Below, one piece after another: positions 26,740-43,010 of a stretch of DNA of 64,000 nucleotides. A program made the position numbers and the translations under genes. Under the pieces are notes generated by a model that did not search any database, was not told the origin of the DNA, and saw only the letters and a program-made list of their open reading frames with translations. This DNA is from Armatimonadota bacterium (GTDB taxonomy: Bacteria > Armatimonadota > Zipacnadia > Zipacnadales > UBA11051). The DNA lies in contig JABLXH010000016.1 of the NCBI GenBank assembly GCA_013178155.1, positions 1 through 64,000 on the forward strand. Reading direction: 5' to 3'. Numbering within the stretch: the first letter of the stretch is position 1; the number at the start of each line of letters is the position of its first letter.

Positions 26740-29634
26740 CTACTGCACGACCACCATCTGGTATCCCAGGCCCGGCACTGTTAGCTTCGCCTTGCCGTCT
26801 GCCAGCGCCAGCGGCTGTTTCCCCGGCCAAAGCACGGCCCGGCGCGGAGCAAAGCCCAGTCCGGCAGGGTTGATGGTCACGGTGCCCTCCCGCGACTCTC
26901 GACCCACGTTCCCCACGACGAGCAGGGCCTTACCGAGCTTCCGATAGGCACTCACGTGGACGTCGGCCATGTCGGTGGCGGCCGGCGGCTGGGCCGCGAA
27001 GTAGCCCACGAAGTCACTGTCCACGTAGCCGAAGCTGTCCAGTGCCGCCAGCGCTTCGTTGACGACATCAGCATTGCACCAGATCGGCCATACGGCTGTG
27101 TCATGCAGCATGAGCAGAGCCATGAGGCCGCGCGTGGGCTCGACTTGCCTGGCGCGCTCCTGGTCGAACTCCGGCAGGAAGAAGGGCATGATTCCCCACT
27201 GTCGCCCCATGTACTCGGCGCGGAAGGTGTCCAGCGACATCAGGTCCAGGTAGCTGTCCTTGACGACGCCGCGGAAGTGCTCGCCGTCCAGATAGGAGTC
27301 CTCATAAGCCAGGATGGGAATGGTTACCTTCCCGGACATGTGGGCCATGATGAAGGTTGGCGACGGTCTGGACTTGATCACCGCGTACATCCGGCGGTAC
27401 AGGTCGCGGTAGGCCCGGATGGGGAAGGTCGGGTAGCGCTGGCCGTCACGCTCGTAGCCGAGGCCGGCGGCGGCGCTGGCGGAGCTGTACGGGTGGGTGT
27501 TGTCATGGTAGACGCCATCCACGCCGTAGCGCCGGATGAAGTCTGCCGTCTTGGTCACGATGAAGTCTGAGTAGCCCTGGCCCAGGGGGGAGACCATGGC
27601 GAAACCCGCCCCGTACTGCGCCACATCGGCCGAACCGGTGTCCACCGGCCCCATCGCCCAGTACTTGCCAAAGTACGGCCACTCGGGGCAGGCTGCGGAC
27701 AGGAAGCTCAGGCACAGGTAGGGAACGGCCTTTACCCCATCGCGGTGCAGGCCGGCCACCCGCTGGCGGAACAGAGCAGGGTCTGTGGCCTCGGGATAGC
27801 CGTACCAGCGGAGCGAATCCGGCTCCGGGGTGGGCCAGATGATGCTCACGGTGGCGTTCCGCCCTGGTTGTAGCCGCCACTTGCGCCAGTCCTTCGGCAG
27901 TGGCTTCACGGGGGTCGCCTGCAACCCGAACCCCAGCTTCCAGTTCGCCGGCAGCTTCTGCCCAGGGGCCAGGATGTTTAGCCGCAAGGTCACACGCCCG
28001 CCCGACCGGATGACTTGCACCGCGTCGGTCTGTTGTCCGTTGGGCCACATCTCATCGGACTCGCAGAACCAGAACAGCCCCCGGTCATTGTCACCGAGCC
28101 AGTAGTAGGGGATGAACTTCTCCTGGTCCACGACGCCCTCGCCAGACGGCAAGTTACCCGTCACCCGGCTGCTGTCCCATGTGTAGGCATACCGGTGTCG
28201 GTAGAGGGCACGCTCCGACCGCAGAGGGATGTCTATGGTCAGGCGGTCGAGCGTCTCCGGCCGGTCCACGGTCAACTCGCACCAGAGCATGCCGTCGTAC
28301 TCGATGGAGGTAATGCCGCGGACCTCCACCTGGGCACCATTCAGGCCATATCGCCACGACCCTGTGACTTCGCAGCGCGTATCGGACCCGCGGGTGGGCG
28401 CTGAAACAACGGACTCGACGAGTTGGCCGTCCGCCCCCGCCGACCCGGCTCTGATCGCGATGGGCGCCGCAAGGAGTCGCTCGCCGGCGGAGCTGATCCG
28501 GTTGGGCAGGGGACCCCGGTCAAAGGCGTAGTTGCGGCCCCACACGCTGACGACAGATCCCTTCACCTGAACCGGTGTCCAGGGCGGCAGCACCCTGTCG
28601 GCTAAGCCGAGCCTGCTGCCCATCCAGGACAAGGTATCGGGCACCGCGGCGGGCTTGCGCAACTCGAAGACCTCGGCTCCGTCCTGCTGTACCTGCGCCA
28701 CCACCTCATAGTCGCCCGGCCGGCGTGAGCCGAGCGGCAGGACCGCCTCGGCCTGCCCGCCGGCGAACCTGGCCGACGCGGCATCGGCGGGTAGTGGCTG
28801 GCCCGGCGCGACCATGGCCACACGCGCTGTGAGGGACTCGTCTGGCACATCGGCGCCGCTGGTGTTGACCTGGACCCGCAGCTCCCCCGCGGCCGGGTCC
28901 ATGGAGTAACTCAGAATCGTGCCCTCCGCCGTCAGCGGGACCATCACGTCAAAACGTCCCTCAAAGTGCGCGGCGATGTGCGCCGGGCTCAGGGGGCGGT
29001 CGTACAGCCGCACCTCGTCAATCAGCGACGAGCTGCTACGCGGCAGGTGCCACGGATTGTCGCCGATGGTGACCTCACTGCCCAGCGACTGCGGCAGCTT
29101 ACAGGGCGTCGGGACTGCGGCGGCGGGCTTGCCGTCCACGTAGGCCATGACGCCCTGGGCCGACCAGGTTCCGGCGATGTGGTGCCACTGGCCGGGCTCC
29201 CAGTCCAACTCCGTGCTGCTCACGGCATACGGCCCCGCCACATTGTCGCAGGACAGCATCATCAACCGCACACTGTCATGGAACTTGTACAGATACAGCG
29301 CGCCCTGGCCCCGCGTATCGAAGAAGACGTGGAACTCGTTCTCGGCCGGACGCCAGTCCAGCGGGCAGACCCACATCTCCACGGTCCCGCCCTTTGGACG
29401 CAGGAGGCCCGTCGTCGGGTAGCGTACGTAACCGCTGCCAGGACCGGACTTGAGCGCCTGGCCGACCTTTCCCGGCGCGAGCGTCGGGGCGCCCTCGGGC
29501 GTGCCGGCAACGACGCCGGCGGCTCCGACACCATTGAGATCGTTATCGAAGCTGATCGTGGCCGTCGGCTTGACCTGCGCCAACGCCCCGGACATCAGAC
29601 ACAGCAGGAGTGTAACGTCAAGCATACGCCTCAT
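26740..29634 (-). CDS. Secreted LamG-domain protein with putative glycoside-hydrolase barrel
   Basis: A predicted extracellular 964-aa protein. ATG 29634 follows GGAGGGG; the signal is MRRMLDVTLLLCLMSGALAQ. Residues about 60-225 form a LamG/concanavalin-like domain (GGTVEMWVCPLDWRPAENEF, EPGQWHHIAGTWS, SLIDEVRLYDRPLSPAHIAA). A beta-sandwich region leads into a likely TIM barrel (about 595-875) with DGVKAVPYLCLSFLS, RRYGVDGVYHDNTHPYSS and AYEDSYLDGEHFRG, where acidic residues sit at strand ends as in glycosidases. The last 80 residues form a small beta-domain. The family resembles the poorly characterised GH-like DUF6067 group, but I am not certain. It heads a four-gene unit, so its upstream region 29635-29823 should carry the promoter. 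Confidence 0.72.
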   Translation of the reverse strand: MRRMLDVTLLLCLMSGALAQVKPTATISFDNDLNGVGAAGVVAGTPEGAPTLAPGKVGQALKSGPGSGYVRYPTTGLLRPKGGTVEMWVCPLDWRPAENEFHVFFDTRGQGALYLYKFHDSVRLMMLSCDNVAGPYAVSSTELDWEPGQWHHIAGTWSAQGVMAYVDGKPAAAVPTPCKLPQSLGSEVTIGDNPWHLPRSSSSLIDEVRLYDRPLSPAHIAAHFEGRFDVMVPLTAEGTILSYSMDPAAGELRVQVNTSGADVPDESLTARVAMVAPGQPLPADAASARFAGGQAEAVLPLGSRRPGDYEVVAQVQQDGAEVFELRKPAAVPDTLSWMGSRLGLADRVLPPWTPVQVKGSVVSVWGRNYAFDRGPLPNRISSAGERLLAAPIAIRAGSAGADGQLVESVVSAPTRGSDTRCEVTGSWRYGLNGAQVEVRGITSIEYDGMLWCELTVDRPETLDRLTIDIPLRSERALYRHRYAYTWDSSRVTGNLPSGEGVVDQEKFIPYYWLGDNDRGLFWFCESDEMWPNGQQTDAVQVIRSGGRVTLRLNILAPGQKLPANWKLGFGLQATPVKPLPKDWRKWRLQPGRNATVSIIWPTPEPDSLRWYGYPEATDPALFRQRVAGLHRDGVKAVPYLCLSFLSAACPEWPYFGKYWAMGPVDTGSADVAQYGAGFAMVSPLGQGYSDFIVTKTADFIRRYGVDGVYHDNTHPYSSASAAAGLGYERDGQRYPTFPIRAYRDLYRRMYAVIKSRPSPTFIMAHMSGKVTIPILAYEDSYLDGEHFRGVVKDSYLDLMSLDTFRAEYMGRQWGIMPFFLPEFDQERARQVEPTRGLMALLMLHDTAVWPIWCNADVVNEALAALDSFGYVDSDFVGYFAAQPPAATDMADVHVSAYRKLGKALLVVGNVGRESREGTVTINPAGLGFAPRRAVLWPGKQPLALADGKAKLTVPGLGYQMVVVQ

Positions 29635-29823
29635 GGGACCCCTCCGTGTATGCGCGGCGCGCGTAAGCTTGGCCCCGGACTATGAGGCCCCGGTGCTCTA
29701 TCCACTTCCTGCTGGGTTACGCGCTCCCCTTCCCCCTCCTCTGGAGAAGGAAGCCGGTCAGGCCGCGCCGAACCTGCCCCTGCCTTCCGGATGGGCCATC
29801 TCCCCCCGCCGACTGCGCCGCCC

Positions 29824-31767
29824 ATGGAGCAACAAGCTGACCGCCAGAGCACCTACTGGGGCATCACTCGCCGGTCACTGGGCCTTGGCGCGCTGCTCGT
29901 ACCGGTCAACTGCTACTGGATGCTCTATATGGAGGTGGCCTGGAACCAGGGTTACGCCACGCTGCTGTCGCTTTACTTCAACACTGTCTTCACCCTGACG
30001 GTCCTCGTGGTCGCAAACCTGGCGGTGCGCCGCCTGGCCCCCCGGCTGGCGCTCACCCGCAACGAATTGCTGGTCACCTTTGTGATGGTGAACATCGGCA
30101 CCTCGTTGGCTATCTCCCTGGAGTACCTGGTGCCGATCCTGGTCTACCCTTTCCGCTATGCTTCCCCGGAGAACCACTGGGAGGAGCTGATCCATCCGCA
30201 CCTGCCGTCATGGCTGTTTGTGAGTGACCCGGAGGCGGTTCGGCAGTACTACGACGGCGATGCGGTGTTTGAGACGAGACGGGCCGTGGCGCCCTGGCTG
30301 CTGCCACTGGGGCTGTGGGGCGCCTTCACCCTCACGGTGCTGGGGGTCATGCTCTGCCTCAATGCCCTGGTAAGACGGCGCTGGACCGAACACGAGCGCC
30401 TATCCTACCCCATCGTGCGCATCCCCCTGGAGCTGGCGGCCGACCAGACGCCGCTGCGTTCGGTGCTGTTTTGGATCGGCTTCATCATCGCCGCCGGGCT
30501 GGACACCTACAACGGCCTGGCCCTGTTCTGGCCCGCCCTGCCGCAGATACCCATCAAGCGCCGGCCCTGGTACCCGACGCAGGGGCTGTCGGCACCGTGG
30601 AACGCCATCAAGCTCTGCCCGCTGTCCTGGCACCCCTTCGCCCTCGGCATGGCCTACTTCATGCCCCAGGACATGCTCTTCTCCTCGTGGTTCTTCTACT
30701 GGTTTGCCAAGGCGCAGGCGGTGGCCGCGGCCATGGTCGGCTGGAGCTGGTCGGGCGACGACTACTTCCGCTTCGCACCCTACCTGCACGAGCAGTCGTT
30801 CGGTGCGCTCATCGGTCTACTGGCCTTCGCCGGCTGGATGGCCCGCGGATCCTGGCTCAGGCGGTCGTCGGCGAGCGACGGAGACGCCGCCCGGGCGCGT
30901 GAACCTCTCCCTCCGGGTGTCGCGCTGGCCGGTGTGATGGGCGGCCTCGCGGCCCTGGCCGCCTTCCTGGTGGCGGCCGGCATGAGCCTCGGTGTGGCCC
31001 TGACGTGGCTTGTGACCTTTTTCGCCGTCTCCATGGCCGTCACGCGCCTCCGGGCCCAGTTCGGCCCCCCCGGCGCCGGGCTCTTTGAGACCGCACCCAA
31101 CAACATGCTCTTTGCCGCCTTCGGCCCCCGCAACCTGGGGCCCCGCAACCTGACGATGTTGGCCTCCCTGCACTGGCTCCAGCGGATGTACTCCGGCAGC
31201 GCGATGCCCCACCAACTGGAGGCGATGAAGATCGCCCAGCTCCGCGGCTGGCAATACCGCCCCCTCCTGCAGGCCATCATGCTGGCCGGCCTCCTGGCTA
31301 TCGTGGCCTCCTTCTGGACCATTCTGCACCTCTCCTACGACCTCGGGCAGGACACCGCGCGCGTGGCGCAGACCCAGAACTACTTTGGTCGCGAGCCGAC
31401 GATGATTCTCAGCAACAACCTGGGGATGGCGAATCAGGGGCCGAATCTCGGTGCCGTCGGCGGCATGCTCTTCGGCGGCGGTCTGGCGATCCTGCTGGTG
31501 GCGATGCAGATGCGCTTCGTGTGGTGGCCCTTCCACCCGGTGGGCTATGCCCTGCTCAGCAGCTACGTCACCCACATCCTCTGGCTGCCGATGCTCCTGA
31601 GCTGGGTACTCAAGGCGGCGCTCCTGCGCTACGGCGGCTGGCGCGCCCACCGCCAGGGCATCCCCCTGGCCCTCGGCCTGATCCTCGGCGAGTTCGTGGT
31701 GGGCAGTCTCTGGGGCCTCATTGGCGTCCTCATCCGCCAGCGCACCTACGTCTTCTGGCCCTACTGA
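29824..31767 (+). CDS. DUF6785/DUF6784-type multi-spanning membrane protein, copy 1
   Basis: An integral membrane protein of 647 aa with about 12-14 hydrophobic helices, matching the DUF6785 (N-terminal) plus DUF6784 (C-terminal) architecture. Family landmarks are FRYASPENHWEELIHPHLPSW after the third helix, RRRWTEHERLSYPIVRIPLE, the FMPQDMLFSSWFFYWFAKAQ helix, WWPFHPVGYALLSSY, and the ending ALLRYGGWRAHRQGIPLALG. ATG 29824 is preferred over ATG 29791 because the earlier stretch is Pro-rich and unlike the family. No experimental function is known to me; the fold resembles oligopeptide-transporter-like proteins and a transport role is inferred. It is divergent from the LamG gene and convergent with the gene at 31782. 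It is the only full-length copy of three in the window. Confidence 0.8.
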   Translation: MEQQADRQSTYWGITRRSLGLGALLVPVNCYWMLYMEVAWNQGYATLLSLYFNTVFTLTVLVVANLAVRRLAPRLALTRNELLVTFVMVNIGTSLAISLEYLVPILVYPFRYASPENHWEELIHPHLPSWLFVSDPEAVRQYYDGDAVFETRRAVAPWLLPLGLWGAFTLTVLGVMLCLNALVRRRWTEHERLSYPIVRIPLELAADQTPLRSVLFWIGFIIAAGLDTYNGLALFWPALPQIPIKRRPWYPTQGLSAPWNAIKLCPLSWHPFALGMAYFMPQDMLFSSWFFYWFAKAQAVAAAMVGWSWSGDDYFRFAPYLHEQSFGALIGLLAFAGWMARGSWLRRSSASDGDAARAREPLPPGVALAGVMGGLAALAAFLVAAGMSLGVALTWLVTFFAVSMAVTRLRAQFGPPGAGLFETAPNNMLFAAFGPRNLGPRNLTMLASLHWLQRMYSGSAMPHQLEAMKIAQLRGWQYRPLLQAIMLAGLLAIVASFWTILHLSYDLGQDTARVAQTQNYFGREPTMILSNNLGMANQGPNLGAVGGMLFGGGLAILLVAMQMRFVWWPFHPVGYALLSSYVTHILWLPMLLSWVLKAALLRYGGWRAHRQGIPLALGLILGEFVVGSLWGLIGVLIRQRTYVFWPY

Positions 31768-31781
31768 CCCCCCGAGGGTGC

Positions 31782-32984
31782 CTAGAGCCCCGGCAGTTGC
31801 GGCAGCAGTTCCAGCACCCAGCCCAGCATCCACGCCTGGTTCTCCGGTGGACGCGGCTCGGACTTCCCGGTCACGGGGAAGTACCCGCCGGCCTCCACTG
31901 TCTCCGGCGTCAGGTTCGCCAGCAGCCAGTCCCGCGCCAGCAAGGCCCTTTCGCGGTAGGTCGCGGCATCGGACCCGCTCAGCATCCCTGCCTCGCGCGT
32001 GCGCAGGTAGGACAGGATCGCTCCGGCGGTCTGCCCCAGCCACTTGTCATCGCGTCCCGTCATCCCGCACGCCCCGTCGTCGAACTGGCAGGCATCGAAG
32101 TGCCAGCGCATCGAAGCCGCGCACTTCTCGCCGAGGTGCTGCTTAAGGTCAGTGCTGTCAGTGGCCCGAGCCAGCCGCACCAGGTAGTCAATGGTCCCCA
32201 CCGAGGAGAAACCCCAAGAGGTCTCATGGGCCTTCACCCCGTCTATGTGCTCAAAGCTGGAGATGACGGTGGGGTTGACCACCCAGGCGCCCAGTTCCGA
32301 CGACCAGCAGCCCTTGTAGGTGCCCGGTTCGACTTCGGTCAGGTAGTACTCCGCCAGACCCTCGGCATCGGCCAGCGCGGCGGTGCTGCCGGTGGTCTCA
32401 TAGTAGCCCACGAGCCCGCGCCCCACGTGGCACAAGTCGTCGGAGTTGGCGCAGTCCTCGATCCCCAGGGCGGCCAGGCCGTAGCCGTTGCGGAAGTAGC
32501 TGCCCTCGTCCCACCGCCAGTAAAGCAGCCATTCATACAGCGCCGCGGCTTTGGCATGGAAGGAGTAGTCGCCGGGGTTGCAGCGGGCGAACTCGGCGAA
32601 GCCCGCCAGGGCCATGCCATACAGGAAGGGCCAGGCCATGATGTTGCGGCTCCAGTCCCGACGCACCTCGTTGGGCCCCTCCTTCTCAGTCATGTACTGA
32701 TCCCACAGGCGGGAGTAGTCGTCGAGTTCGGTCGAGGGGTTGCGCAGCGCCGCCAGGTAGTAGACCACATAACGGTCAGCCGCCGCCTTGTAGGCCGCCT
32801 CGCCCGTGGCCTCATGGGCACGGTAAAGCCCGATGGCCATGAAGCTGGGGCTGTGAAACTGCGTACAGACCGTCAGGGAGTCGGTGGTCACGAAGGGGCA
32901 GCGCTCCGGGTCGGGCCGGCCGAAGGGGGACTGCCAGGCCACGAAGCGGTCAGCGAGCATTCGGATCTGGGCCTGAAGCGACAT
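31782..32984 (-). CDS. Putative cytoplasmic (alpha/alpha)6-toroid protein
   Basis: A 400-aa protein without a signal peptide, starting at ATG 32984 after GAGGTG. It is helix-rich with repeated aromatic motifs in a pattern like alpha/alpha-toroid glycosidases and epimerases: HSPSFMAIGLYRAHEATGEA, WPFLYGMALAGFAEFA, LYEWLLYWRWDEGSYFRNGY, SWGFSSVGTIDYLVRLARAT, ENQAWMLGWVLELLPQL. No family is recognised with confidence, and catalytic residues cannot be named. It is the last gene of the long minus-strand operon from 42.8 kb and lies 30 bp after the broken M20 gene. Processing of an imported oligosaccharide is a reasonable guess. Its stop is 14 bp from that of the convergent DUF6785 gene. Confidence 0.7.
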   Translation of the reverse strand: MSLQAQIRMLADRFVAWQSPFGRPDPERCPFVTTDSLTVCTQFHSPSFMAIGLYRAHEATGEAAYKAAADRYVVYYLAALRNPSTELDDYSRLWDQYMTEKEGPNEVRRDWSRNIMAWPFLYGMALAGFAEFARCNPGDYSFHAKAAALYEWLLYWRWDEGSYFRNGYGLAALGIEDCANSDDLCHVGRGLVGYYETTGSTAALADAEGLAEYYLTEVEPGTYKGCWSSELGAWVVNPTVISSFEHIDGVKAHETSWGFSSVGTIDYLVRLARATDSTDLKQHLGEKCAASMRWHFDACQFDDGACGMTGRDDKWLGQTAGAILSYLRTREAGMLSGSDAATYRERALLARDWLLANLTPETVEAGGYFPVTGKSEPRPPENQAWMLGWVLELLPQLPGL

Positions 32985-33014
32985 GTGAGCACCTCGGCAG
33001 GCGGAGAGTGTGCG

Positions 33015-34162
33015 TCAGGCGGACGTCCCGCACCAGTCGGCGATGAACCAGGCCAGTGTCCGCGCCGCCGCGAGCAGGTCCTCAACCGGCAGTGCCTCGT
33101 CCACGGCATGGGCGGCCGCCAGGCTCCCCGGTCCGAAGATCACCGTCGGCACCGCGAGGCGGTTCACGAAGTGCCGCGCGTCGCAGCCACCGGGGAAGGT
33201 GGTGAGGCACGGTCCGCCCTCGGCGGTCGGGGCGTCTCCCCCCGACCGCGCCAGGCTGGCGGCATGCAGCAGCCCCTGGGTCAGTGGGTGGTCGGCAGGC
33301 GTCTCAGCGGCATCGTAGTGGCTGAAGACCTCGGCGCGGAGGTCTGTCGGCGAGTCATCCCGGGCGACCGGAAGCGGCGCCAGGGCCGCTCGGACCGCCG
33401 CCAGAAGCCTCGCCGCCGTGCCGGGCGCATAGCGCAGTCCCACCTCGAACTCGCAATGCCGGGGCACGCTGAAAATGTCCTCGCCGCCCGCAATGCGCCC
33501 CACGTTCAGCGACGGCGGGCCGTAGGCGGCATCTTGCGGTGACGACCAGCCGTCGAGTGCCGGCCCCAGTGCCCGGATGGCCTCAGCGGCGCGGGCGATG
33601 GCCCCGCGGGGGACGCGCCCTGCCACCGCGGCATGTCCGGGCTCCGCCTCGGCAGTCACTCGCAGGCCGATGATGCCCCGGTGACCGTAGGCCACATCCA
33701 TCCCCGTGGGCTCCAGGACAATGGCCGCGTCAGGCGGGTCGGCGTCCAGGCACGCCGCCAGCGTGCCATTGCCACCGGGCTCCTCGTCCACGACCGACTG
33801 CAGGATGACGCGCCCCGCCGGCTCCAGACCCGCGTCCCGCAGCGACAACAGGGCCATCGCCGCGGCGATGAGCTGCCCTTGGCGTCCACCACGCCGCCCT
33901 CCCACGTCACCACATCCACATGCGAGTTCAGGACCAGCCACGGCGCTCCCGCCTCCCCCCGGCCCCACTCGGCCACCAGGTTCGGCCGGTCGGCCAGCGG
34001 CAGCCCGGTCTCCACGAGGCCGTCGGCCTGCCGCAGGCGCTCCTCGGGCAACGGAACCAGGCGCGGCTCCAGGCCCCCCGTCCGCAGCAGCTCCGCCAGC
34101 GCGGCCACGCCCCAGTCCAGGCGTTGCCCCACCGCCTCAGCAATCCGCTGCAGGTCGGCCAC
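33015..34162 (-). pseudogene. M20 family metallopeptidase, frameshifted and missing loops
   Basis: A cytoplasmic Zn-dependent amidohydrolase of the M20 (ArgE/DapE/CPG2) family, broken. Translation from GTG 34162 (after GGAGTAGG) gives LLRTGGLEPRLVPLPEE, RPNLVAEWGRG and LVLNSHVDVV with the first Zn ligands, then VVDAKG. There the frame is lost. The neighbouring frame continues at once with QLIAAAMALLSLRDAGLEPA, VVDEEPGGNG (catalytic Glu), VLEPTGMDVAYGHRG and FPGGCDARHF to the stop at 33015. One missing base in the CCC run near 33875 would restore it. In addition, the segment between HVDVV and VVDAKG is about 20 residues shorter than in the family: the W...PF...dGr.yGRG loop is reduced to TWEGG. 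The N-terminal 'SvsPpG.E' region is also absent. It lies 3 bp after the M20 fragment. Confidence 0.8.
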
Positions 34163-34165
34163 AGC

Positions 34166-34480
34166 CTACTCCTCTCGCAAATAGCTAAGGATGGTCAGGG
34201 CATAGATCTCGGCGGCGCGGAACAACTCCGCCACTGCCACGCTCTCGTTGGGCCGGTGACAGTGGGGCAGCAGTCCCGGCCCGAAAGCTGGAACGGTCGG
34301 GATGCCGCCCACGCCCTGCCACCAGATGGCGTCGGTCCCACCGGGGAAGGTCCCCAGCGGCGGGGCCTCGCCCAGGAGCGTCGCCGCCGCCCGCTCATTA
34401 CCAGGTGGCGAGGGGCTGGGGGCGGCGATCAGCGCCCTGGCGAAGGCCAGCAGGTTGTCCCCTTCCGCAGGCGTCAACAT
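34166..34480 (-). pseudogene. M20 peptidase remnant: N-terminus fused to C-terminus
   Basis: The 104-residue open frame joins the N-terminal helix of an M20 peptidase (NLLAFARALIAAPSPSPPGN, matching the 'L..Lv.ipSvsppGnE' opening) directly to an M20 C-terminus (GTFPGGTDAIWW, GIPTVPAFGPG, LPHCHRPNESVAV, IYALTILSYL). The join is near residue 40. About 280-300 residues, including most zinc ligands and the catalytic Glu, are absent although the frame is kept. It cannot be an active peptidase. It sits between the oxidoreductase gene (22 bp away) and the second, also damaged, M20 gene (3 bp away). Decayed gene or assembly collapse are the two explanations; I favour neither. Confidence 0.78.
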
Positions 34481-34501
34481 GGTTCCTGAGGTGCTGTGGA
34501 G

Positions 34502-35503
34502 TCACATGTCCAGGCGCACCGGCCTGCCTTCCGCCGCTGACTGGATCAGCGCCCCGGCCACCTCCAGCGAGGTCAGGACCTCCTCATGCGTCGGGACCTC
34601 GATGGGCAGGTCGTGGTTCAGGCAGTGCACGAAATAGGCGATCTCGTCCCTCAACGCACCCACGGTCGTGCCGTGCATCTCCGGCCAGTACGACGTGTCC
34701 GGTGTAGCCACGCGATCCGCCAGCCAGAAGCCCAGGCCGTTGCCCGGCACCTCCAACCACGCGGTTCCCTTCGTGCCGATGACCTCGGCCAGGATGTGAC
34801 CGCGCCAGGGCGTGGAATCGGGCAGCATCCACGCCGTCTCGATGACCCCGATGGCGCCATCGTCCATGGTGATCATGCCCCAGAACACATCATCACCATC
34901 GCCGCCCACGGAACGGCTGCGCATGTAGACCTCCACCGGCTTGCGCCCGGCGCAGTACCACAGCAGCAGGTCAATGTCATGGATGCCCGTGGTGTAGAGG
35001 CGGTTGGCCTTGTTGTAGATGGGGCGGAAGGAGGCGGGCAGGTTGCGGCGGCCGTAGAAACTGACCACCTCGCCCAGCTCGCCCCGCGCGATACTCTCCT
35101 TGATGGCCGCGCAGCGGGTGTCGAAGCGCAGGATGTGGCCCACCATGAGCTTGCGCCCCAGGCGGTGCGCCGTGGCCACCATCTCCCGCGCCTCGTTCAG
35201 GTCATGGCTCAGGGGCTTTTCGACCAGCACCTCCAGCCCGGCGTTCAACGCCGCCATGACCGGCCCGAAGTGCCGCGTGTCCTCGGTGACGACATGCACC
35301 GCGTCCAGTTCTACTGCACTCAGCAAGGACTCGGTGTCGGGGAAGGTGCGGGGCACGCCGTAGCGCTCGGCCAGTTCCCGGGCGCGGGATTCGGTGCGCG
35401 AGACGAGTGCCACTACCTCGGCCCCGTCCAGGGCCGATAGGACGCTCAAGTGCCGGGCACCGAAGTCTCCGGCACCAATGACGGCGATACGGGCGGGGTT
35501 CAT
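34502..35503 (-). CDS. Gfo/Idh/MocA family NAD(P)-dependent oxidoreductase
   Basis: A cytoplasmic dehydrogenase of 333 aa, usual length. The N-terminal Rossmann domain has IAVIGAGDFGARHL, the family EKP motif in LVEKPLSHDL (about residue 95), GHILRFDTR, and the C-terminal alpha/beta domain with TTGIHDIDLLLWYCAG where the substrate-site His normally lies. It probably oxidises or reduces a sugar or inositol-type polyol carried through the same operon. It lies 35 bp after the FGGY kinase and 22 bp before the M20 remnant. Unlike its neighbours it looks intact. The exact substrate is undetermined. Confidence 0.9.
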   Translation of the reverse strand: MNPARIAVIGAGDFGARHLSVLSALDGAEVVALVSRTESRARELAERYGVPRTFPDTESLLSAVELDAVHVVTEDTRHFGPVMAALNAGLEVLVEKPLSHDLNEAREMVATAHRLGRKLMVGHILRFDTRCAAIKESIARGELGEVVSFYGRRNLPASFRPIYNKANRLYTTGIHDIDLLLWYCAGRKPVEVYMRSRSVGGDGDDVFWGMITMDDGAIGVIETAWMLPDSTPWRGHILAEVIGTKGTAWLEVPGNGLGFWLADRVATPDTSYWPEMHGTTVGALRDEIAYFVHCLNHDLPIEVPTHEEVLTSLEVAGALIQSAAEGRPVRLDM

Positions 35504-35538
35504 GATTGCACCATCCGGTTAGCAGTCGAAGGTTGGCC

Positions 35539-36750
35539 TCAGGCCCTGGCGACCGACAGGTATCGGGCCAGGCGCCGCTCGTACTCAGCCGCCCGGGCCG
35601 GGTCCGGCGAGACGCTCTCACCGCTGCGGCAACAGCCCACCACCGCCTGCTCCACGGACCCGTAGACCCCCTGGTTTACCAGGGCCAGCATGGCCGCCCC
35701 GAGGCCCGTCAGGTCGGCAGAGGCCAGGCCCTCCAGCCGCAGGCCGTAGCAGTCGGCGCGTAGCTGAGCCCAGGACCGGTCATCCAGCGGCGTGCCGGAG
35801 ACGATGCTCTGCGGCGTCGCGCCGAGCGCGGCCGCGGCAGCGATGATCTCCTTCAGCGACAGCGCCACGCCCTCGTAGACCGCCAGAGCCAGGTCCGCCG
35901 CCCCATGCTCCTCACGCAGGCCACAGAAGGCTCCCGTAGCTCCGGCAGACCACAGCAGCCCGCGCTCGCCCTTGATGCAGGGCAAGTACAACGGCGGCTC
36001 GGGCCGGTCAGAGGGCGGGTAGTCCAGGGGCAGACGCCCAGCGTCGCCCATTCCCGCCAGCAGCCGCGCGGCCCAGTCCAGCGATCGCCCGGCGGCATTG
36101 GTCGTCCCGCCCAGCAGGTACCGCCCCGCGATCGGGTGCGGGTAGAGATCTACCAGTTCCTCGGGGTCATAGGCTGCCACGTCGGTGCAGACCAGGATGG
36201 TGCCCGTGGTGCCGATGTGCTCCAGGGCCTGTCCCGGCGCGACCACGCCCGCGGCAATGACCTCGATATCGTCCCCAGCACCGACGACCAGCGGCAGACC
36301 CTGCGGTAGCCCGAACGCCTCCGCCGCCTCCGAACTGAGCCGTCCCGCCTCGGCCCACGGTTCACGGACTTCAGGAAGCTGCTCCGCCCGCGCGCCGATG
36401 GCCGCGAGCAAGGTCTCGTCCCACGCCCGCGCCTCCAGGTTCCATAGCAGCGTCCCAGCGGCGTCCAGGGGGTCGGTCACCGGCTCTCCCCCCAGCATGA
36501 TCCGCAAGGCATCCTTGGGCGCGACAAACAGCCGCGTGGCCGCGAACAACTTCGGCTCATGCTCGCGCAGCCAGGTGATCTTGGCTGCCGGTGTATAGCC
36601 TTCCAGCTGTCCGCCGGTCCGCCGGTAGGCCTCGCCGGGCGGTAGGCGGCGCTGCACTTCCGCCGCGCTCTCCTCGGCCCGCCGGTCAAAGAGCGTCCAG
36701 CAGCTCGTCAGCGGCCGCAGGTCGGCGTCCAGCGCCACCAGATCGTGCAT
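35539..36750 (-). CDS. FGGY-family carbohydrate kinase, N-terminally truncated
   Basis: A sugar kinase of the FGGY family (xylulose/fuculose/rhamnulose kinase relatives), 403 aa against about 490-510 normally. Present are TAHMHDLVALDADLRPL (partly upstream of the listed ATG), AAKITWLREHEP, LPLVVGAGDDIEVIAAGVVA, the ATP-site segment EHIGTTGTILVC, and SWAQLRADCYGLRLEG with LGAAMLAL. The first ~50 residues with the obligatory G-D-x-G-T-T phosphate-binding motif are absent. The nearest well-placed start is ATG 36857 with GGGAGA, but it is in another frame (MSDLASRVEGLAAEH); the kinase frame picks up as HLAARQAAECEPLAVSVTAH. So there seems to be a frameshift plus missing sequence, and the product is probably inactive as read. 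It follows DUF3830 in the operon. Confidence 0.78.
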   Translation of the reverse strand: MHDLVALDADLRPLTSCWTLFDRRAEESAAEVQRRLPPGEAYRRTGGQLEGYTPAAKITWLREHEPKLFAATRLFVAPKDALRIMLGGEPVTDPLDAAGTLLWNLEARAWDETLLAAIGARAEQLPEVREPWAEAGRLSSEAAEAFGLPQGLPLVVGAGDDIEVIAAGVVAPGQALEHIGTTGTILVCTDVAAYDPEELVDLYPHPIAGRYLLGGTTNAAGRSLDWAARLLAGMGDAGRLPLDYPPSDRPEPPLYLPCIKGERGLLWSAGATGAFCGLREEHGAADLALAVYEGVALSLKEIIAAAAALGATPQSIVSGTPLDDRSWAQLRADCYGLRLEGLASADLTGLGAAMLALVNQGVYGSVEQAVVGCCRSGESVSPDPARAAEYERRLARYLSVARA

Positions 36751-36863
36751 GTGCGCGGTGACGCTGACTGCCAGTGGCTCGCACTCCGCTGCCTGCCGCG
36801 CGGCCAGGTGCTGTGTTCCGCAGCGAGCCCCTCGACACGGCTCGCGAGGTCGGACATGACAGG

Positions 36864-36869
36864 TCTCCC
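36864..36869 (-). promoter_or_regulatory. Ribosome-binding site ahead of the kinase's apparent original start
   Basis: GGGAGA (minus strand) sits 6 nt before ATG 36857. That ATG opens a frame that dies by shift into the FGGY kinase frame within about 15 codons, which is why the site matters for reading this locus. Confidence 0.5.
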
Positions 36870-36882
36870 TTTCTGGTGGCTA

Positions 36883-37335
36883 CTAGCCCTCGACGCGCCG
36901 GACCGTGAAGCGCTTCTGGCCCTCGCGGCGCATGCGGAAGCACAGCGCTCGGAGCTCCTCCTGGCCCGAGACGAAATGGGCGAAGAGGTTCACCTGCACC
37001 GGCCCCTCGGCCATGCTGGGCACCGAACCCCGGTCGTAGAGGAAACAGATCTCGCTGAAGTCCGCGTCCACCTCGGTGTAGTCGCTGGCTTTGAGCGAGA
37101 CGAAGCCGATCTCCCACGGCAGCACCACCGTGGTGGCATTCTCCTGCCCCATCTCACGGTACTCGGGCAGCACCATCGCCACTTCCGGGCCAGAGTAGAT
37201 GGCATGGTGGAAGTAGGCAGTAACCGACAGCATGTCCCAGACGAGCTGGCAGGTCAAGGGAGCTTTGCCATCCCATGGCTCCGCCCGGGCGGTGAAGCCT
37301 TCGTCCTCGGCGATGAACCCGATGAAGCGCGACAT
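36883..37335 (-). CDS. DUF3830 family protein (cyclophilin-like fold)
   Basis: A small cytoplasmic protein of 150 aa. ATG 37335 (MSRFIGFIAEDEGF) is preceded by GGGAGGGC at good spacing, better than the ATG 15 nt upstream. The pattern fits DUF3830, a cyclophilin/AF0104-like beta-barrel: KAPLTCQLVWDML, AYFHHAIYSGPEVAMVLPE, ENATTVVLPWEIGFVSLK, CFLYDRG and QVNLFAHFVSG. The biochemical function is unknown. DUF3830 genes are, to my knowledge, often next to amidohydrolases or M20 peptidases; here M20 remnants lie 2.7 kb downstream in the same operon. It is 19 bp after the DUF6785 gene and 25 bp before the kinase start. Confidence 0.75.
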   Translation of the reverse strand: MSRFIGFIAEDEGFTARAEPWDGKAPLTCQLVWDMLSVTAYFHHAIYSGPEVAMVLPEYREMGQENATTVVLPWEIGFVSLKASDYTEVDADFSEICFLYDRGSVPSMAEGPVQVNLFAHFVSGQEELRALCFRMRREGQKRFTVRRVEG

Positions 37336-37354
37336 AGGGTGCCCTCCCATGTGC

Positions 37355-39309
37355 TCAGATCCAGCAGATGATGTTGCCGGTCTTGCCGGTGAAGTGGTCC
37401 ACCACCAGCCAGGCGGCGTTGATGGTGAACTGGCCGCAGATCAGGCCGAGGAACACCGGCCGGAGCCGCTGGTACTGCCGGTTGCCGCCATAGCGCAGGA
37501 TCAGCGACTTCAGCAGCCACGCCAGGAAGCAGGTGAACCACATGGTGTCCATCATCCACACCCCGCCGACCGCGAGGCCGAGAGGGTGGATGGACCAGCC
37601 GGGGTACTGGAACCGCAAGCCCGCCAGAGCCGGGTACAGCGCCCCGCCGGCCGCCGCCAGCCCCAGGCCGTACCACGCAGGGCCGGTCGGGTCCTGGATC
37701 ATCTGCGCCAGGTACGAGTAGTTGAAGTTCGGCCCGGCGTTGAAGTACCAGTTGTTCATGGTCACGCCACCCTGGGCGTAGGCGCGGGTGGTTGTGAGCC
37801 AGATGGACGAGACGGCCGCCACGACGAGGGCGATCAGGTAGCCCCAGACCAGGCGCCCCCGCCGGTCCTCGACCACATCGGCGGCTTTGAGGCTGTTGGC
37901 CACGGCGCACATCACGAAGTTGCGGTTACCCGAGCACCAGACAAAGGTCAGCCCGGCGCCCACAACGCCCGCCGGCCCGAGGGCCCGCGACCCGAGCCAG
38001 GAGATCACCATGTTGGGGGCTTGCTTGGGGCTGGTGGCAGCCGCGAAGTTGAAGTCCGTCACGACGCGCGTAATGCCATTATGGAACACGAAAGCCAACA
38101 CGAGCAGCAGTCCGGCGGCCACTGGCAGTAGCCCCGACCGCACCGGCCACCAGACCATGACCGCTGACCCTCCGGCCAGCAGCCCCAGCGCGGCGCGAAA
38201 GGGCAGGATCTCCCGGGAGTCGTACTCGTCGCCCCCGCTGACTGCTGCCCGCCAGACCCGCCGCAGATGCCCCTGGCCCACCCAGAGGCTGGAGGCCACC
38301 AGGGCCACGAACGCTCCGGTGCCAAGGTGGATGAAGTAGGGCTCCTTCGCCCCGCCGGCCGCCCCCATCACCTCGGCCCCGGCCACACCCAGGATGTTCA
38401 GCACGCCCTGAGCGATGAAGTACAGCCGGTTCAGCAGCCACAGGCTCAGCGACGCCTCCCGGGTGACCATGTAGAAGAAGCCCAGGAGAGCCCAACTCAC
38501 CTGGATCTGCAAGGTCAGCTTGCTGCGGAACACCGGGATGTTGGCAACCTGAGGCACGGCGGGAATGGCCGGGAAGTAGGCGTTGAGACCCTTCAGCAGG
38601 CCCAGCACCACCGGGATGCTCAATCCCAGCCAGAACAGGCGGTTGGCGAGGATCGCCGGACGCCCGCCGGTCTCCGCCCCGGCCAGTTCCAGTGGTAGCT
38701 GGGTCAGCGAGTAAGCTGACCGCTCGTGGTCCACCCATTGCCGGCGCAACAACACCATCACCGCGATCATCATCAGAAACAGTGCGATGATAAGCGGGGC
38801 CCAGGCCAGCAGCGCCGGCAGCCACGGGCCCCATGCAGTCCGGGCTCCGGCTGGCAGTCCCTCGAACAGCGCGGTGATGACAGGAACGCCGACGCCCGCC
38901 CCAGGGGGCACAGCCCAACTCGGGAAGTGCTCCAGCAGCAGCTTCTCCCAGTGGTTCTCGGGTGTGGCATAGTAGAACGCTGCCTAGGGGAAGGGGATCA
39001 GGCAAGCGGTGAAACCTGGGTGCAGATGGGCGAGGCCACGATCGGCATTGAGTAGATGGTGATGATTTCGGCCGGGCGCAGGGCATAGCGGGGTGCGAAC
39101 CGGCTCAGTGGCGCCTGCACCAGCAGACAGAACGCAGACAGCAGGAAGATGGCCCCGGGGGTGCTGAAGTCCAGGGTCATGTACGAGCCGCGGATGACAT
39201 GATCCACCCACGGGCCGCCAAGCCCAATGGCCAGCGCCCCCAACGTCCCGATGAGGAGAGCCCGGCAGGTGATGGCTCCCCCCGCCGCGTTGCCCTGCAC
39301 GGTCAACAC
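37355..39309 (-). pseudogene. DUF6785/DUF6784-type membrane protein, copy 2, broken
   Basis: Together two reading frames cover a full-length family member. The first (39309 to 38998, 103 codons from GTG) has the first two membrane helices and ALRPAEIITIYSMPIVAS, then ends at TGA 38998-39000. The second frame resumes with FYYATPENHWEKLLLEHFPSW, equivalent to copy 1's FRYASPENHWEEL, and runs through RRQWVDHERSAYSLTQLPLE to the typical ending LILRYGGNRQYQRL. Reading that frame backwards gives GFTACLIPFP, then a TAG at 38984-38986. So both a frameshift and an in-frame stop separate the halves. The C-terminal part could still start internally (GTG or ATG near 38911). It directly follows the GH106 gene with 4 bp between stop and start. 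Confidence 0.75.
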
Positions 39310-39313
39310 CCGT

Positions 39314-42300
39314 TCACTTCCGCTTTCCCGTCGGTTCGGCGTCTGACCAGTCGAACGGCAGTTCCGGCATCGCCCGCAGGGTCACCGGGCCGAGAAGGCC
39401 GGAGGGCAACAGCGGATCATCGGCATGCCACAGGCGCCAGGTGGTGAAGGTGTAACGCCCGGTGGGACTGGGCTCGCCGGCCAACAGCCACGGCGGCCAG
39501 GCCTGCAGCGTGCCATTGGCGTGGCGCTCACTGTCCTCCGGCAGTTGTTCATCGCCGATCATCCGGTTGGGCCAGAGGTTGGTCACATGCACCTCCAGCG
39601 CGTTTGTCCCGGGCTGCGCCGCGGCGGTCACGTCGAGCCGGTAAGGGGCATGCCACAGCACTCCCAGGTCGGTGCCGTTGAGGATCACGCGAGCCATCAC
39701 CTCTACCCGCCCCAGGTCGAGGGCTAACCGCCGGCCGGGGGCCAGCAGTCCGGGTGGCAGGTCGAAGGCGGTGCGGTATGTTCCCGTGCCCGAGAAGTGC
39801 CTCACTCCGGGATCGGGGTGGTCGGACCACGAAACGAGGGTGTCTAGCGCGACGTGCTCGGGGGCGCCCCAGTTAGGGGGGAAGTGTAAGTCCCACGGCC
39901 CGGCAACGGCCTGCTCCCGCGGGGCCGGAGCGCTGAGGTTCAGTATGCGCCCGGAGCGCAGGTGTAGCTGGTAGCGGCCGGGGTGCATGGCGACCAGTCG
40001 CGGCTGTCCGTCGGCGGCGCACTCCACGGTGGCGGGAGGGGGTGCATCGCCGGGCAACTGAAAGACGATGGGCTCCCAGTCGGTGGCGCTGGCTGTCATC
40101 ACCTGACCACCGGACTCGTACTCAACGTGCAGGGTCTTCACCACCATGGGCGCCGGGTCGCCCTCGGAGGCCAGCTCCGCCACCTGGAAGGAGGTCAGGC
40201 CCCGGTCCAGGAGCCGTTGCACCTGCGCCGTGACGTCCTTGACCCGCCGTCGGGGCTCCAGGCTTTCCCCGGCCGGCCCCCAGACCGCGCGGCGGATGGT
40301 GATCTCCTCCCCCGCCCGTGGCGCCTCGAAGATGAGGCGCTGGGGATCTGTCGCCTCGGCAGTCAAATCCCTGTCCCCCACCCGATACTCCACCCGCAGC
40401 GTCTTGAGCACCTGGGGCGCGGGGTCGCCCATGATGCCCACCAGGTCGGCCACCACGAAGGACATCGTGCCCTGGTCCACGAGCCGCTGCACGGCCTTCG
40501 TGACGTCGCGCACCCGTGACTGCGCTTCGGTCACACCCCACTCGGCCTTCCGGACCGTGATCCGGGCCGGCTCGGAGGGCCGGGGCCAGACCGTCTGGGT
40601 GCCACGGGTCATCCGCAGTACCGGGTCGGAAAGCCTCGGCCCTGGCTTGAACACCACGAACACTGCCTCTGCCGCTTCCAGGCGCAGGGGCACCCGCGTG
40701 ACGCCCCGCTCCTCAGCGTAGGCAGCCACCGGAGTCATGGCCCCCGTCTCCGGTCGCCAGAGCTCCACTCGCCGCCCGGTCGCCCGGAACGAGCACAGAG
40801 CGTTGACCGCATGAGGGAAGGTGTTAGCCACAAAGTACAGGTCAGTGCTCCCCACCCGTCGGTGGACGAAGTTCAGGACGCGGTCGGCGGAGAAATCGGG
40901 AGGAACGCCCCGCGCCGATAGCACCTCCGCCACACTCTTGCCCGCGATGACACGCCCACTTCCCCACAGGGCCTTGGCCTCGGCCTGCAGGGCTGCGTCG
41001 CAGGCGGGGTAACCTCGCAGCCCGGGCGCCCGACTCGGCGGAGCGCCGACAATCGTTGCCCCGGCCCTCGCCAGCCGCCCGATGCAGGCCAGTAGCTCCG
41101 GCGTCATGGTCTCGGCGCCCGGTAATACCAGCGCGCGATAGCTCATCCCGTCCGGCAGCACCAGCCGACCGCCCCGGACGCTGACCCGTTCCATGAGAGC
41201 CTCCGCCGGGCACGCGTCACCTCGATAGCCCGAACGCTCGACCTCCGGCGGCGGGTTGAAGCTTCGCGGCGCGCCTTCGGGCGCCAGGTACAGCACGTCC
41301 ACCACGGGGAGGCCCTGCCGCAGCAGGTACTGGCACCGGGCCAGATACTGATGCCAGGCCCCGGACTCCTCCCACCAGGTCTGTGTGCGCTCGTAGTGCA
41401 GACCCCAAGGGCCCATGGACATGCCCGGACGGCGGTCCGCCCACGGCTGCAGGGCGTAGCGATGGAAGACGAAGCGATTGATGCCCAGGCAGAGGGCCCA
41501 GTCGCCCATGGCTTTGATGGAGCCGGGATGGCCCAGCCACTTCTCATCGTTGTTGGCGGTGAAGGCCTCGGCCCCGATGATGGGCTTGCCATAGACACGA
41601 GCCGCCGAGGCCATCTGGGTCAGGGTCCCCCCGGCGCTGAAGGGCGGCCAGGACCAGAACTCGCCCATCGGCTCGTCCGCCCGGCCGGCGTAGGCCAGGT
41701 CGTCCACGGTCGTGTCGCCGTAGGCCTCGATGGATAGCCGCAGCCCGCGCCGCTGTGCCAGCTCGCGCATGTGCCCGGCGTAGTTGTCCAGCAGCAGGTC
41801 GGACACCGTCTGCCGAAAGTCATACAGGAAGCGCTCCGAGACCTCCAGGCTCTCAACGACGCGCCCCGTAATCACCGGCAGGTAGGGCAGCAGATCATAG
41901 CCGCGTCGCGCCAGGAACTCCTCGCGGAAGCGGGGGGTCCAGTTCTGCGACCCATTCTCCCAGCTATCTATGTGGGTCGAGACAAAGGTCGTGCCGGCCA
42001 GCGGCCCCACGTCGTCGGCCAACCGGGCGATGAAGCCCTCGAAAGCGGCCTCGGCGCCCTCTGGGCTCAGCTTGTCGCATTCCAGCCCCCGACCGGACTC
42101 CGGTGCCGGCGCATTGACCATGCCGGTGCAGGTATGCCCCAGGCGCAGGATGGTCCAGTTGCCCGCCGGGACATCCCAGACCAGATGGCCGTCGGTGCCC
42201 AGGCGCACAGTGAGGTCCACGATACGGTCGCGGGGAATGGTCTGCTCCGCTGGCAGCTCGGGATAGCTGCCCGGGGGATGGACGTCATGGCGCACAAAGG

Positions 42301-42844
42301 CAGCCTTGCCGGCGATGTCGGGGATGCGGTAGTCGCCGGGCGTCGGGAAGGCCAGCACGGCCACCTCGCGGTAGTGGTCGGCCACCGTGGGCGGCTGGGG
42401 CAGGACGCCCTCGAAGCGGATCGGCCCGGCCACCTGGACTTCGCTCCAGGTCAGCTTCTGCATGGCCTTGTCAGGCGTGATCCACGGCCCGCCGCTACCG
42501 TTCCAGCCCGCATCGTCGTTCATGTTGACCTGCAGGCCCAGGCGATCGGCCTCGCGGACCACGTGCCGGAACAGCTCACGCCACTCCGGTCCCGCAAAGG
42601 CCACCGGGCCGAGAGGCGTGCCCTGGTCTACTTCCATGATGAGCACGCCACCGATGCCGACGCGTTGCATCGCCTCCAGATCGGCGGTGATGCCCTCGCG
42701 GGTGATGTTACCGTTGAGCCAGAACCAATAGACCCACGGTCGCGCGGAGTCCGGGGGCCGGGCGAAGTTGCTGGCCAGGTCGTCAGCCGCCAGACTGCGC
42801 GCGGTGAGCAGCAGCAGAGCGAGAAGAACGGGCCGAACGGCCAT
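39314..42844 (-). CDS. Secreted GH106 alpha-L-rhamnosidase
   Basis: A predicted periplasmic or secreted alpha-L-rhamnosidase of family GH106, 1176 aa. ATG 42844 follows GGAGGAG; the signal is VLLALLLLTARSLAAD. The family opening (ARPWVYWFWLNGNITREGIT, ...MQRVGIGGVLIMEVD) and NMNDDAGWNGSGGPWI, THIDSWENGSQNWTPRFREE, LSIEAYGDT and IIGAEAFTANN mark the catalytic barrel (about 20-500), where acidic residues in these motifs are likely catalytic. Two tandem repeats of about 75 aa (about 760-920; ITVRKAEWG and ITIRRAVWG, each with DVT..VQRL and GDPAP.V.KTL) resemble DUF3395-like beta-domains. A jellyroll follows (about 1000-1130; ARVILNGTDLGVLWHAPY). It heads the long minus-strand operon and is divergent from the second GH36 gene, so both may share control. 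Substrates would be rhamnose-containing pectin or glycans. Confidence 0.87.
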   Translation of the reverse strand: MAVRPVLLALLLLTARSLAADDLASNFARPPDSARPWVYWFWLNGNITREGITADLEAMQRVGIGGVLIMEVDQGTPLGPVAFAGPEWRELFRHVVREADRLGLQVNMNDDAGWNGSGGPWITPDKAMQKLTWSEVQVAGPIRFEGVLPQPPTVADHYREVAVLAFPTPGDYRIPDIAGKAAFVRHDVHPPGSYPELPAEQTIPRDRIVDLTVRLGTDGHLVWDVPAGNWTILRLGHTCTGMVNAPAPESGRGLECDKLSPEGAEAAFEGFIARLADDVGPLAGTTFVSTHIDSWENGSQNWTPRFREEFLARRGYDLLPYLPVITGRVVESLEVSERFLYDFRQTVSDLLLDNYAGHMRELAQRRGLRLSIEAYGDTTVDDLAYAGRADEPMGEFWSWPPFSAGGTLTQMASAARVYGKPIIGAEAFTANNDEKWLGHPGSIKAMGDWALCLGINRFVFHRYALQPWADRRPGMSMGPWGLHYERTQTWWEESGAWHQYLARCQYLLRQGLPVVDVLYLAPEGAPRSFNPPPEVERSGYRGDACPAEALMERVSVRGGRLVLPDGMSYRALVLPGAETMTPELLACIGRLARAGATIVGAPPSRAPGLRGYPACDAALQAEAKALWGSGRVIAGKSVAEVLSARGVPPDFSADRVLNFVHRRVGSTDLYFVANTFPHAVNALCSFRATGRRVELWRPETGAMTPVAAYAEERGVTRVPLRLEAAEAVFVVFKPGPRLSDPVLRMTRGTQTVWPRPSEPARITVRKAEWGVTEAQSRVRDVTKAVQRLVDQGTMSFVVADLVGIMGDPAPQVLKTLRVEYRVGDRDLTAEATDPQRLIFEAPRAGEEITIRRAVWGPAGESLEPRRRVKDVTAQVQRLLDRGLTSFQVAELASEGDPAPMVVKTLHVEYESGGQVMTASATDWEPIVFQLPGDAPPPATVECAADGQPRLVAMHPGRYQLHLRSGRILNLSAPAPREQAVAGPWDLHFPPNWGAPEHVALDTLVSWSDHPDPGVRHFSGTGTYRTAFDLPPGLLAPGRRLALDLGRVEVMARVILNGTDLGVLWHAPYRLDVTAAAQPGTNALEVHVTNLWPNRMIGDEQLPEDSERHANGTLQAWPPWLLAGEPSPTGRYTFTTWRLWHADDPLLPSGLLGPVTLRAMPELPFDWSDAEPTGKRK

Positions 42845-43010
42845 CGCGGGCTCCTCCGTCGGTCTGATGGCGACCCGAGGCAGGTTCTCAGTTCCCCCCG
42901 ACCAGTGCTCACCCCTGCTCCCGTCGGTCAGTGCAGGCGTCGCAGCGGCCACTGCGGAACCGGCCTCGGCTGAGCGTGGACCAATGGCTGGGCCCGCCGG
43001 GAGGAGGACC
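42845..43010. promoter_or_regulatory. Shared divergent upstream region of GH106 and GH36 genes
   Basis: A 166-bp gap with ribosome sites at both ends (GGAGGAG on the minus strand near 42851; GGAGGA on the plus strand near 43002). Both promoters must lie here. I cannot identify a clear operator or -10/-35 pair by eye. Confidence 0.4.

What the first reader, a model, noticed from the sequence alone, without database searches (positions are those of the whole stretch)
34166..34480. M20 peptidase reduced to its two ends in frame
A 104-codon frame fuses the N-terminal helix of an M20 peptidase (ALIAAPSPSPPGN) to its C-terminus (FPGGTDAIWW, FGPG, HRPNE). About 280-300 residues are gone but the frame is kept and the operon spacing is normal. 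In-frame loss of nearly the whole catalytic domain is unusual for random decay.
Basis: partly seen in the sequence, partly recalled or inferred. Interest (0 to 1): 0.66.

Follow-up and report, generated by a model that had tools for sequence, protein, structure and literature searches.

The report
M20 peptidase remnant in decaying operon
A metabolic gene has lost its whole middle and is almost certainly dead; it sits among other broken genes, so its kept reading frame is ordinary decay and not a new kind of protein.

Summary
The minus strand at 34166-34480 encodes 104 residues that match the two ends of an M20 peptidase (YgeY/ArgE/DapE type). Relative to the nearest intact relative found (L027, 446 aa), 288 residues are missing. 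All near-invariant mid-protein positions (HxD, D, EE, H) are gone; the last histidine remains.

The interpretation, that in-frame loss is unusual for random decay, does not hold. (1) The neighbours are broken too: the next gene, a second M20, has a frameshift and two missing stretches; the FGGY kinase lacks ~78 N-terminal residues; the DUF6785 gene is split by a frame change plus a stop. (2) At the join, residues ~29-39 fit both sides of intact relatives, as expected from deletion between two short similar stretches. In 167 long ORFs of this genome, exact repeats of 8-12 bases or more, 600-1200 bases apart, are in phase 60-77% of the time, not 33%. (3) No conserved mini-M20 was found: 12 of 290 other genomes of the phylum match at E<=1e-5, all inside 370-531-codon frames. 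(4) The AlphaFold model is poor.

Verdict: an ordinary pseudogene remnant in a decaying operon. A local misassembly cannot be excluded without reads.

The parts
34166..34480 (-). M20 peptidase remnant, 104 aa: N-terminal ~36 residues joined to C-terminal ~70 residues
34364..34396 (-). zone of the join (codons 29-39): fits both the N-side and the C-side of intact relatives
   Evidence: split comparison; alignment. Exact break point not determinable
33015..34162 (-). second M20 peptidase (ArgE/DapE type), broken: frame change near 33,875, and missing residues after the N-terminal helix and between HVDVV and VDAKG
   Evidence: two overlapping ORFs 33656-34162 and 33015-33968; frame path; alignment to nine relatives
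34502..35503 (-). Gfo/Idh/MocA oxidoreductase, 333 aa, looks intact
   Evidence: Pfam matches over 5-331
35539..36750 (-). FGGY sugar kinase lacking the N-terminal ~78 residues (nucleotide-binding end)
   Evidence: FGGY_N profile matched only from position 79, XylB from 77 of 481; alignment
36883..37350 (-). DUF3830 protein, 155 aa, looks intact
   Evidence: Pfam 5-140 of 143
37355..39309 (-). DUF6785/DUF6784 membrane protein split by a frame change and an in-frame stop near 38,985-39,000
   Evidence: (profile starts at 126 of 498)

Best explanation
It is a pseudogene remnant. An M20 peptidase/deacylase gene (YgeY/ArgE/DapE type, about 395 residues), one of two M20 genes in tandem in a sugar-related operon, lost about 864 bp of its middle, most likely by deletion between two short similar stretches that code alanine-rich helices (RAAA.LLG on the two sides). 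At least three other genes of the same operon are damaged, so selection on it seems to have been lifted. The leftover frame may still be translated but cannot be an M20 enzyme. Shown: the two-ended ORF, the missing 288 residues, the loss of the near-invariant mid-protein positions, and the damage to the neighbours as assembled. Inferred: that the DNA deletion is real, its mechanism, and lack of function.
For: Both ends match the same intact relative with a jump of 288 residues. Near-invariant H (col 143), D (145), D (176), E (210), E (211) and H (278) have no counterpart; the last His (H75) and its surroundings remain. Damage in neighbouring genes. Residues 29-39 fit both sides of the break. 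In-phase share of exact repeats 600-1200 bases apart inside 167 long ORFs: 1403 of 2333 for >=8 bases, 153 of 229 for >=10, 23 of 30 for >=12. No short conserved form: of 291 genomes of the phylum 13 match at E<=1e-5 including the own genome, and the other 12 all lie in frames of 370-531 codons. The genome has one copy of the locus. Four other M20 genes of the genome lie in frames of 415-478 codons. Outside the window 312,820 sampled bases give two frameshift candidates, so the damage looks local. Poor fold model without strands.
Against: The remnant itself has no stop or frameshift and keeps normal codon-position composition and spacing. Gfo/Idh and DUF3830 in the same operon look intact, so not all of the operon is decayed. 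No close relative with the intact gene was found, so the ancestral sequence at the break is unknown and the repeat-mediated mechanism is inferred. The repeat count for >=14 bases was 1 of 2, too few to use.
Confidence: 0.8

Rival explanations
1. Local misassembly or consensus error: the genome is a draft of 211 contigs, and a GC-rich, poorly covered stretch was joined wrongly at several places, giving apparent deletions in several adjacent genes.
For: Draft assembly; several lesions within about 6 kb, with two genes between them that look intact; otherwise the broken genes are well conserved.
Against: The rest of the sampled genome shows few frame breaks: two candidates in 312,820 bases from 7 contigs. 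That test has limited power, since in the window it flagged only one of the three broken neighbours. No N in the window. No second copy of the locus that could have been collapsed.
Confidence: 0.12
2. The ends come from two different tandem M20 genes joined by one deletion, instead of one gene with its middle removed.
For: M20 genes are in tandem here, and M20 C-termini are alike (61 columns at 41% between remnant and second M20).
Against: Both ends match L027 well: C side best of the 11 proteins compared, N side second by E-value (after L030, before L029).
Confidence: 0.05
3. A functional miniature protein, for example a dimerisation or regulatory partner for the second M20 enzyme or a ligand-binding fragment, kept in frame by selection.
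For: Open frame, start codon, coding-like composition on both sides of the join.
Against: No conserved short form in 291 genomes of the phylum. The presumed partner M20 is itself frameshifted. The M20_dimer domain is in the part that is missing. The model has pTM 0.42 and no strands.
Confidence: 0.03

Closest known systems
M20 peptidases of the YgeY / ArgE-DapE deacylase type (Pfam PF01546; NCBIfam TIGR03526, TIGR01910)
   Same: The N-terminal helix with PSPSPPGNE and the C-terminal FPGGTDA...GPG...H..NE segment match.
   Different: 288 residues are missing: the near-invariant HxD, D, EE and mid-protein H positions, and the dimerisation domain.
L027 M20 gene, Solirubrobacteraceae MAG JANJUA010000072.1
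   Same: Closest full-length relative found: 54% over 28 N-side residues, 44% over 73 C-side columns.
   Different: Intact 446-residue ORF; of the eight window genes compared with this locus, only the two M20 queries match there.
Bacterial pseudogenes made by internal deletion (Kuo and Ochman 2010, PMC2916853; abstract and the section on types of mutation read)
   Same: In that study short deletions are the leading kind of single inactivating change, and some pseudogenes carry more than one lesion (32 of 378).
   Different: Here the deletion takes about 70% of the gene; among their single-lesion cases deletions of 20% or less of the ORF predominate (141 of 346).

Membership tests
M20 peptidase (PF01546) | significant match to the family profile | tested here: met
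   27.3 bits, cut-off 24.6, but only positions 138-205 of 206
M20 peptidase (PF01546) | metal-binding and catalytic HxD, D, EE and further positions of the catalytic domain | tested here: not met
   near-invariant H, D, D, E, E, H columns are gaps in the remnant; only the last His is kept (that these are the metal and catalytic positions is recalled)
M20 peptidase (PF01546) | M20_dimer domain (PF07687) | tested here: not met
   no match in the remnant; present in the second M20. Some M20 subfamilies lack it (recalled), so this is not decisive alone
YgeY-type hydrolase (TIGR03526) | score above curated cut-off | tested here: not met
   38.2 bits against 321.5, positions 327-394 of 395 only
pseudogene | loss of parts needed for function relative to intact relatives | tested here: met
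   288 residues missing
pseudogene | absence of purifying selection on what is left | not testable with these tools
   no strain or species carries the same ORF, so no substitution rates
conserved small protein | same short form kept in relatives | tested here: not met
   12 of 290 other genomes match at E<=1e-5, all inside 370-531-codon frames. In one search one weak match (G036, E=6e-4) lies in a 98-codon frame near the start of a contig (bases 115-273), possibly cut by the contig end

The most novel reading that the evidence does not exclude
The 104-residue two-ended M20 is a selected miniprotein, for example a non-catalytic binder derived from an M20 enzyme, retained while the rest of the operon decays.
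Probability: 0.03. Interest if true: 0.55.

Novelty: already known. Interest (0 to 1): 0.1.

Why it matters
Mostly as a caution. In GC-rich genes, codon-position bias puts short direct repeats in phase, so an in-frame internal deletion can be the commoner outcome and is not by itself a sign of selection. A gene caller may list such a remnant as a short M20-family protein. If the sequence is right, the operon is also an example of piecemeal loss of a catabolic cluster.

Tried and rejected
Function as an enzyme: rejected, catalytic positions absent. Conserved mini-M20: not found. Intact orthologue in the same operon position: not found. DUF3830 relatives were found in 7 of 290 other genomes; their neighbourhoods (7 stretches, two of them 9 kb or shorter) hold no close M20 orthologue, only M20 matches of 27-38% identity in three. 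Plasmid records: 13 records with matches, all under 60% identity, not examined further. PDB: one weak match, 3gb0 (named Peptidase T), E=0.05. Genome-wide frame-break test: informative but weak, as it flags only breaks with long overlapping frames; in the window it flagged the second M20 and missed the FGGY and DUF6785 breaks. The GC-by-codon line for 'M20b C' was computed in the wrong frame and is not used. Structure model too poor for a fold search, so none was made. Repeats within 33000-37400 showed nothing that places the break. Literature: searches were search listings; no paper in that library holds the word DUF3830; PMC2916853 was read as outline, abstract and one section.

Full report
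What is there. On the minus strand, 34480..34166 is a 104-codon ORF. Pfam finds only the C-terminal end of Peptidase_M20 (positions 138-205 of 206, E=4.2e-6). NCBIfam points to the YgeY-type and ArgE/DapE-type hydrolases, again C-terminal only and far under their cut-offs. The N-terminal 36-39 residues match the start of intact M20 proteins: L030 45% over 38, L027 54% over 28, L029 55% over 33. The C-terminal 74 residues match the end of L027 (44% over 73) and others. In L027 the two matched parts are 288 residues further apart than in the window.

What is lost. In an alignment with ten full-length relatives the near-invariant HxD, D.K, EE and mid-protein H columns are gaps in the remnant. The M20_dimer domain, found in the second M20, is not found in the remnant. 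Left are the N-terminal helix with PSPSPPGNE, and GTFPGGTDA..GPG..H..NE with the last His. AlphaFold gives pLDDT 65.7, pTM 0.42, four helices and no strand. An M20 enzyme is excluded in practice; a stable fold is unlikely.

The neighbourhood is broken too. The next gene downstream (34162..33015) is a second M20. Its first 96 codons are in one frame and the rest in another (frame change near 33,875). Against nine relatives it lacks the PS..G.E stretch after the first helix and about 15-18 residues between HVDVV and VDAKG. Upstream, the FGGY kinase begins at profile position 79 (XylB position 77 of 481), so its nucleotide-binding start is gone; the residues in front of it read in frame but do not align well. 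The DUF6785 gene is in two frames with a stop between them near 38,985-39,000. Gfo/Idh and DUF3830 look whole.

Is the damage genome-wide? Frame-path analysis of 312,820 bases outside the window (17 stretches, 7 of 211 contigs) gives two candidate frame breaks, against one in the 64 kb window. The test is conservative: in the window it misses two of the three broken neighbours. Four other M20 genes of this genome lie in frames of 415-478 codons; for two of them the tool counts one stop codon in the matched stretch, which may be the gene's own end. The damage thus looks local, as expected when one operon is no longer needed. A local assembly fault would look the same.

Why in frame? By chance alone one deletion in three keeps frame. 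In this genome the expected share is higher if short repeats are involved. In 167 long ORFs, exact repeats 600-1200 bases apart inside one ORF are in phase in 1403 of 2333 cases (>=8 bases), 153 of 229 (>=10) and 23 of 30 (>=12); for >=14 bases there are only two cases, one in phase. I take the cause to be the strong codon-position composition (inference). The join itself has the expected look. Residues about 29-39 (ERAAATLLGEA) fit both the N-side (NERAAAEL in L029 and L030) and the C-side (for example L027, ASTLGAEPRLGTFPGG). The exact break cannot be placed without the intact ancestor.

Relatives. In the phylum set of 291 genomes the remnant matches 13 at E<=1e-5, one being the own genome; the other 12 are 32-40% identical and all in long frames. 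In 41 nearer genomes, own included, 17 match at E<=1e-3; one weak match lies in a 98-codon frame near a contig start. No close orthologue was found, intact or short. DUF3830 has relatives in 7 other genomes. In three of these 7 neighbourhoods it lies near a 57-61% relative of the family-less gene 31782-32984, without the M20 pair between them. So the block of M20, Gfo/Idh and FGGY genes seems particular to this lineage (inference).

Verdict. An ordinary pseudogene remnant by internal deletion (about 0.8), with local misassembly as the main rival (about 0.12). The kept frame needs no selection. Interest is low.

Noticed in passing
31782-32984 (-) and 36883-37350 (-): A 400-residue protein without Pfam (E<=0.01) or NCBIfam match has 57-61% identical relatives that lie within about 4 kb of a DUF3830 gene in three other genomes of the phylum (L089, L090, L094): a possibly linked, undescribed pair.
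   Followed up: partly
35539-36879 (-): FGGY kinase without its N-terminal nucleotide-binding part; an ATG with a ribosome-binding-site-like stretch at about 36,857 starts a short frame that does not resemble FGGY, so a second gene start may have been joined on by the deletion.
   Followed up: partly
37355-39309 (-) and 29791-31767 (+): Two DUF6785/DUF6784 membrane proteins in one window, one broken and one whole, near GH106 (39314-43237) and GH123-like (26740-29634) genes.
   Followed up: partly
L077 about 16,372-16,400 and L071 about 8,126-8,151: Two further frame-break candidates elsewhere in the genome from the frame-path scan.
   Followed up: no
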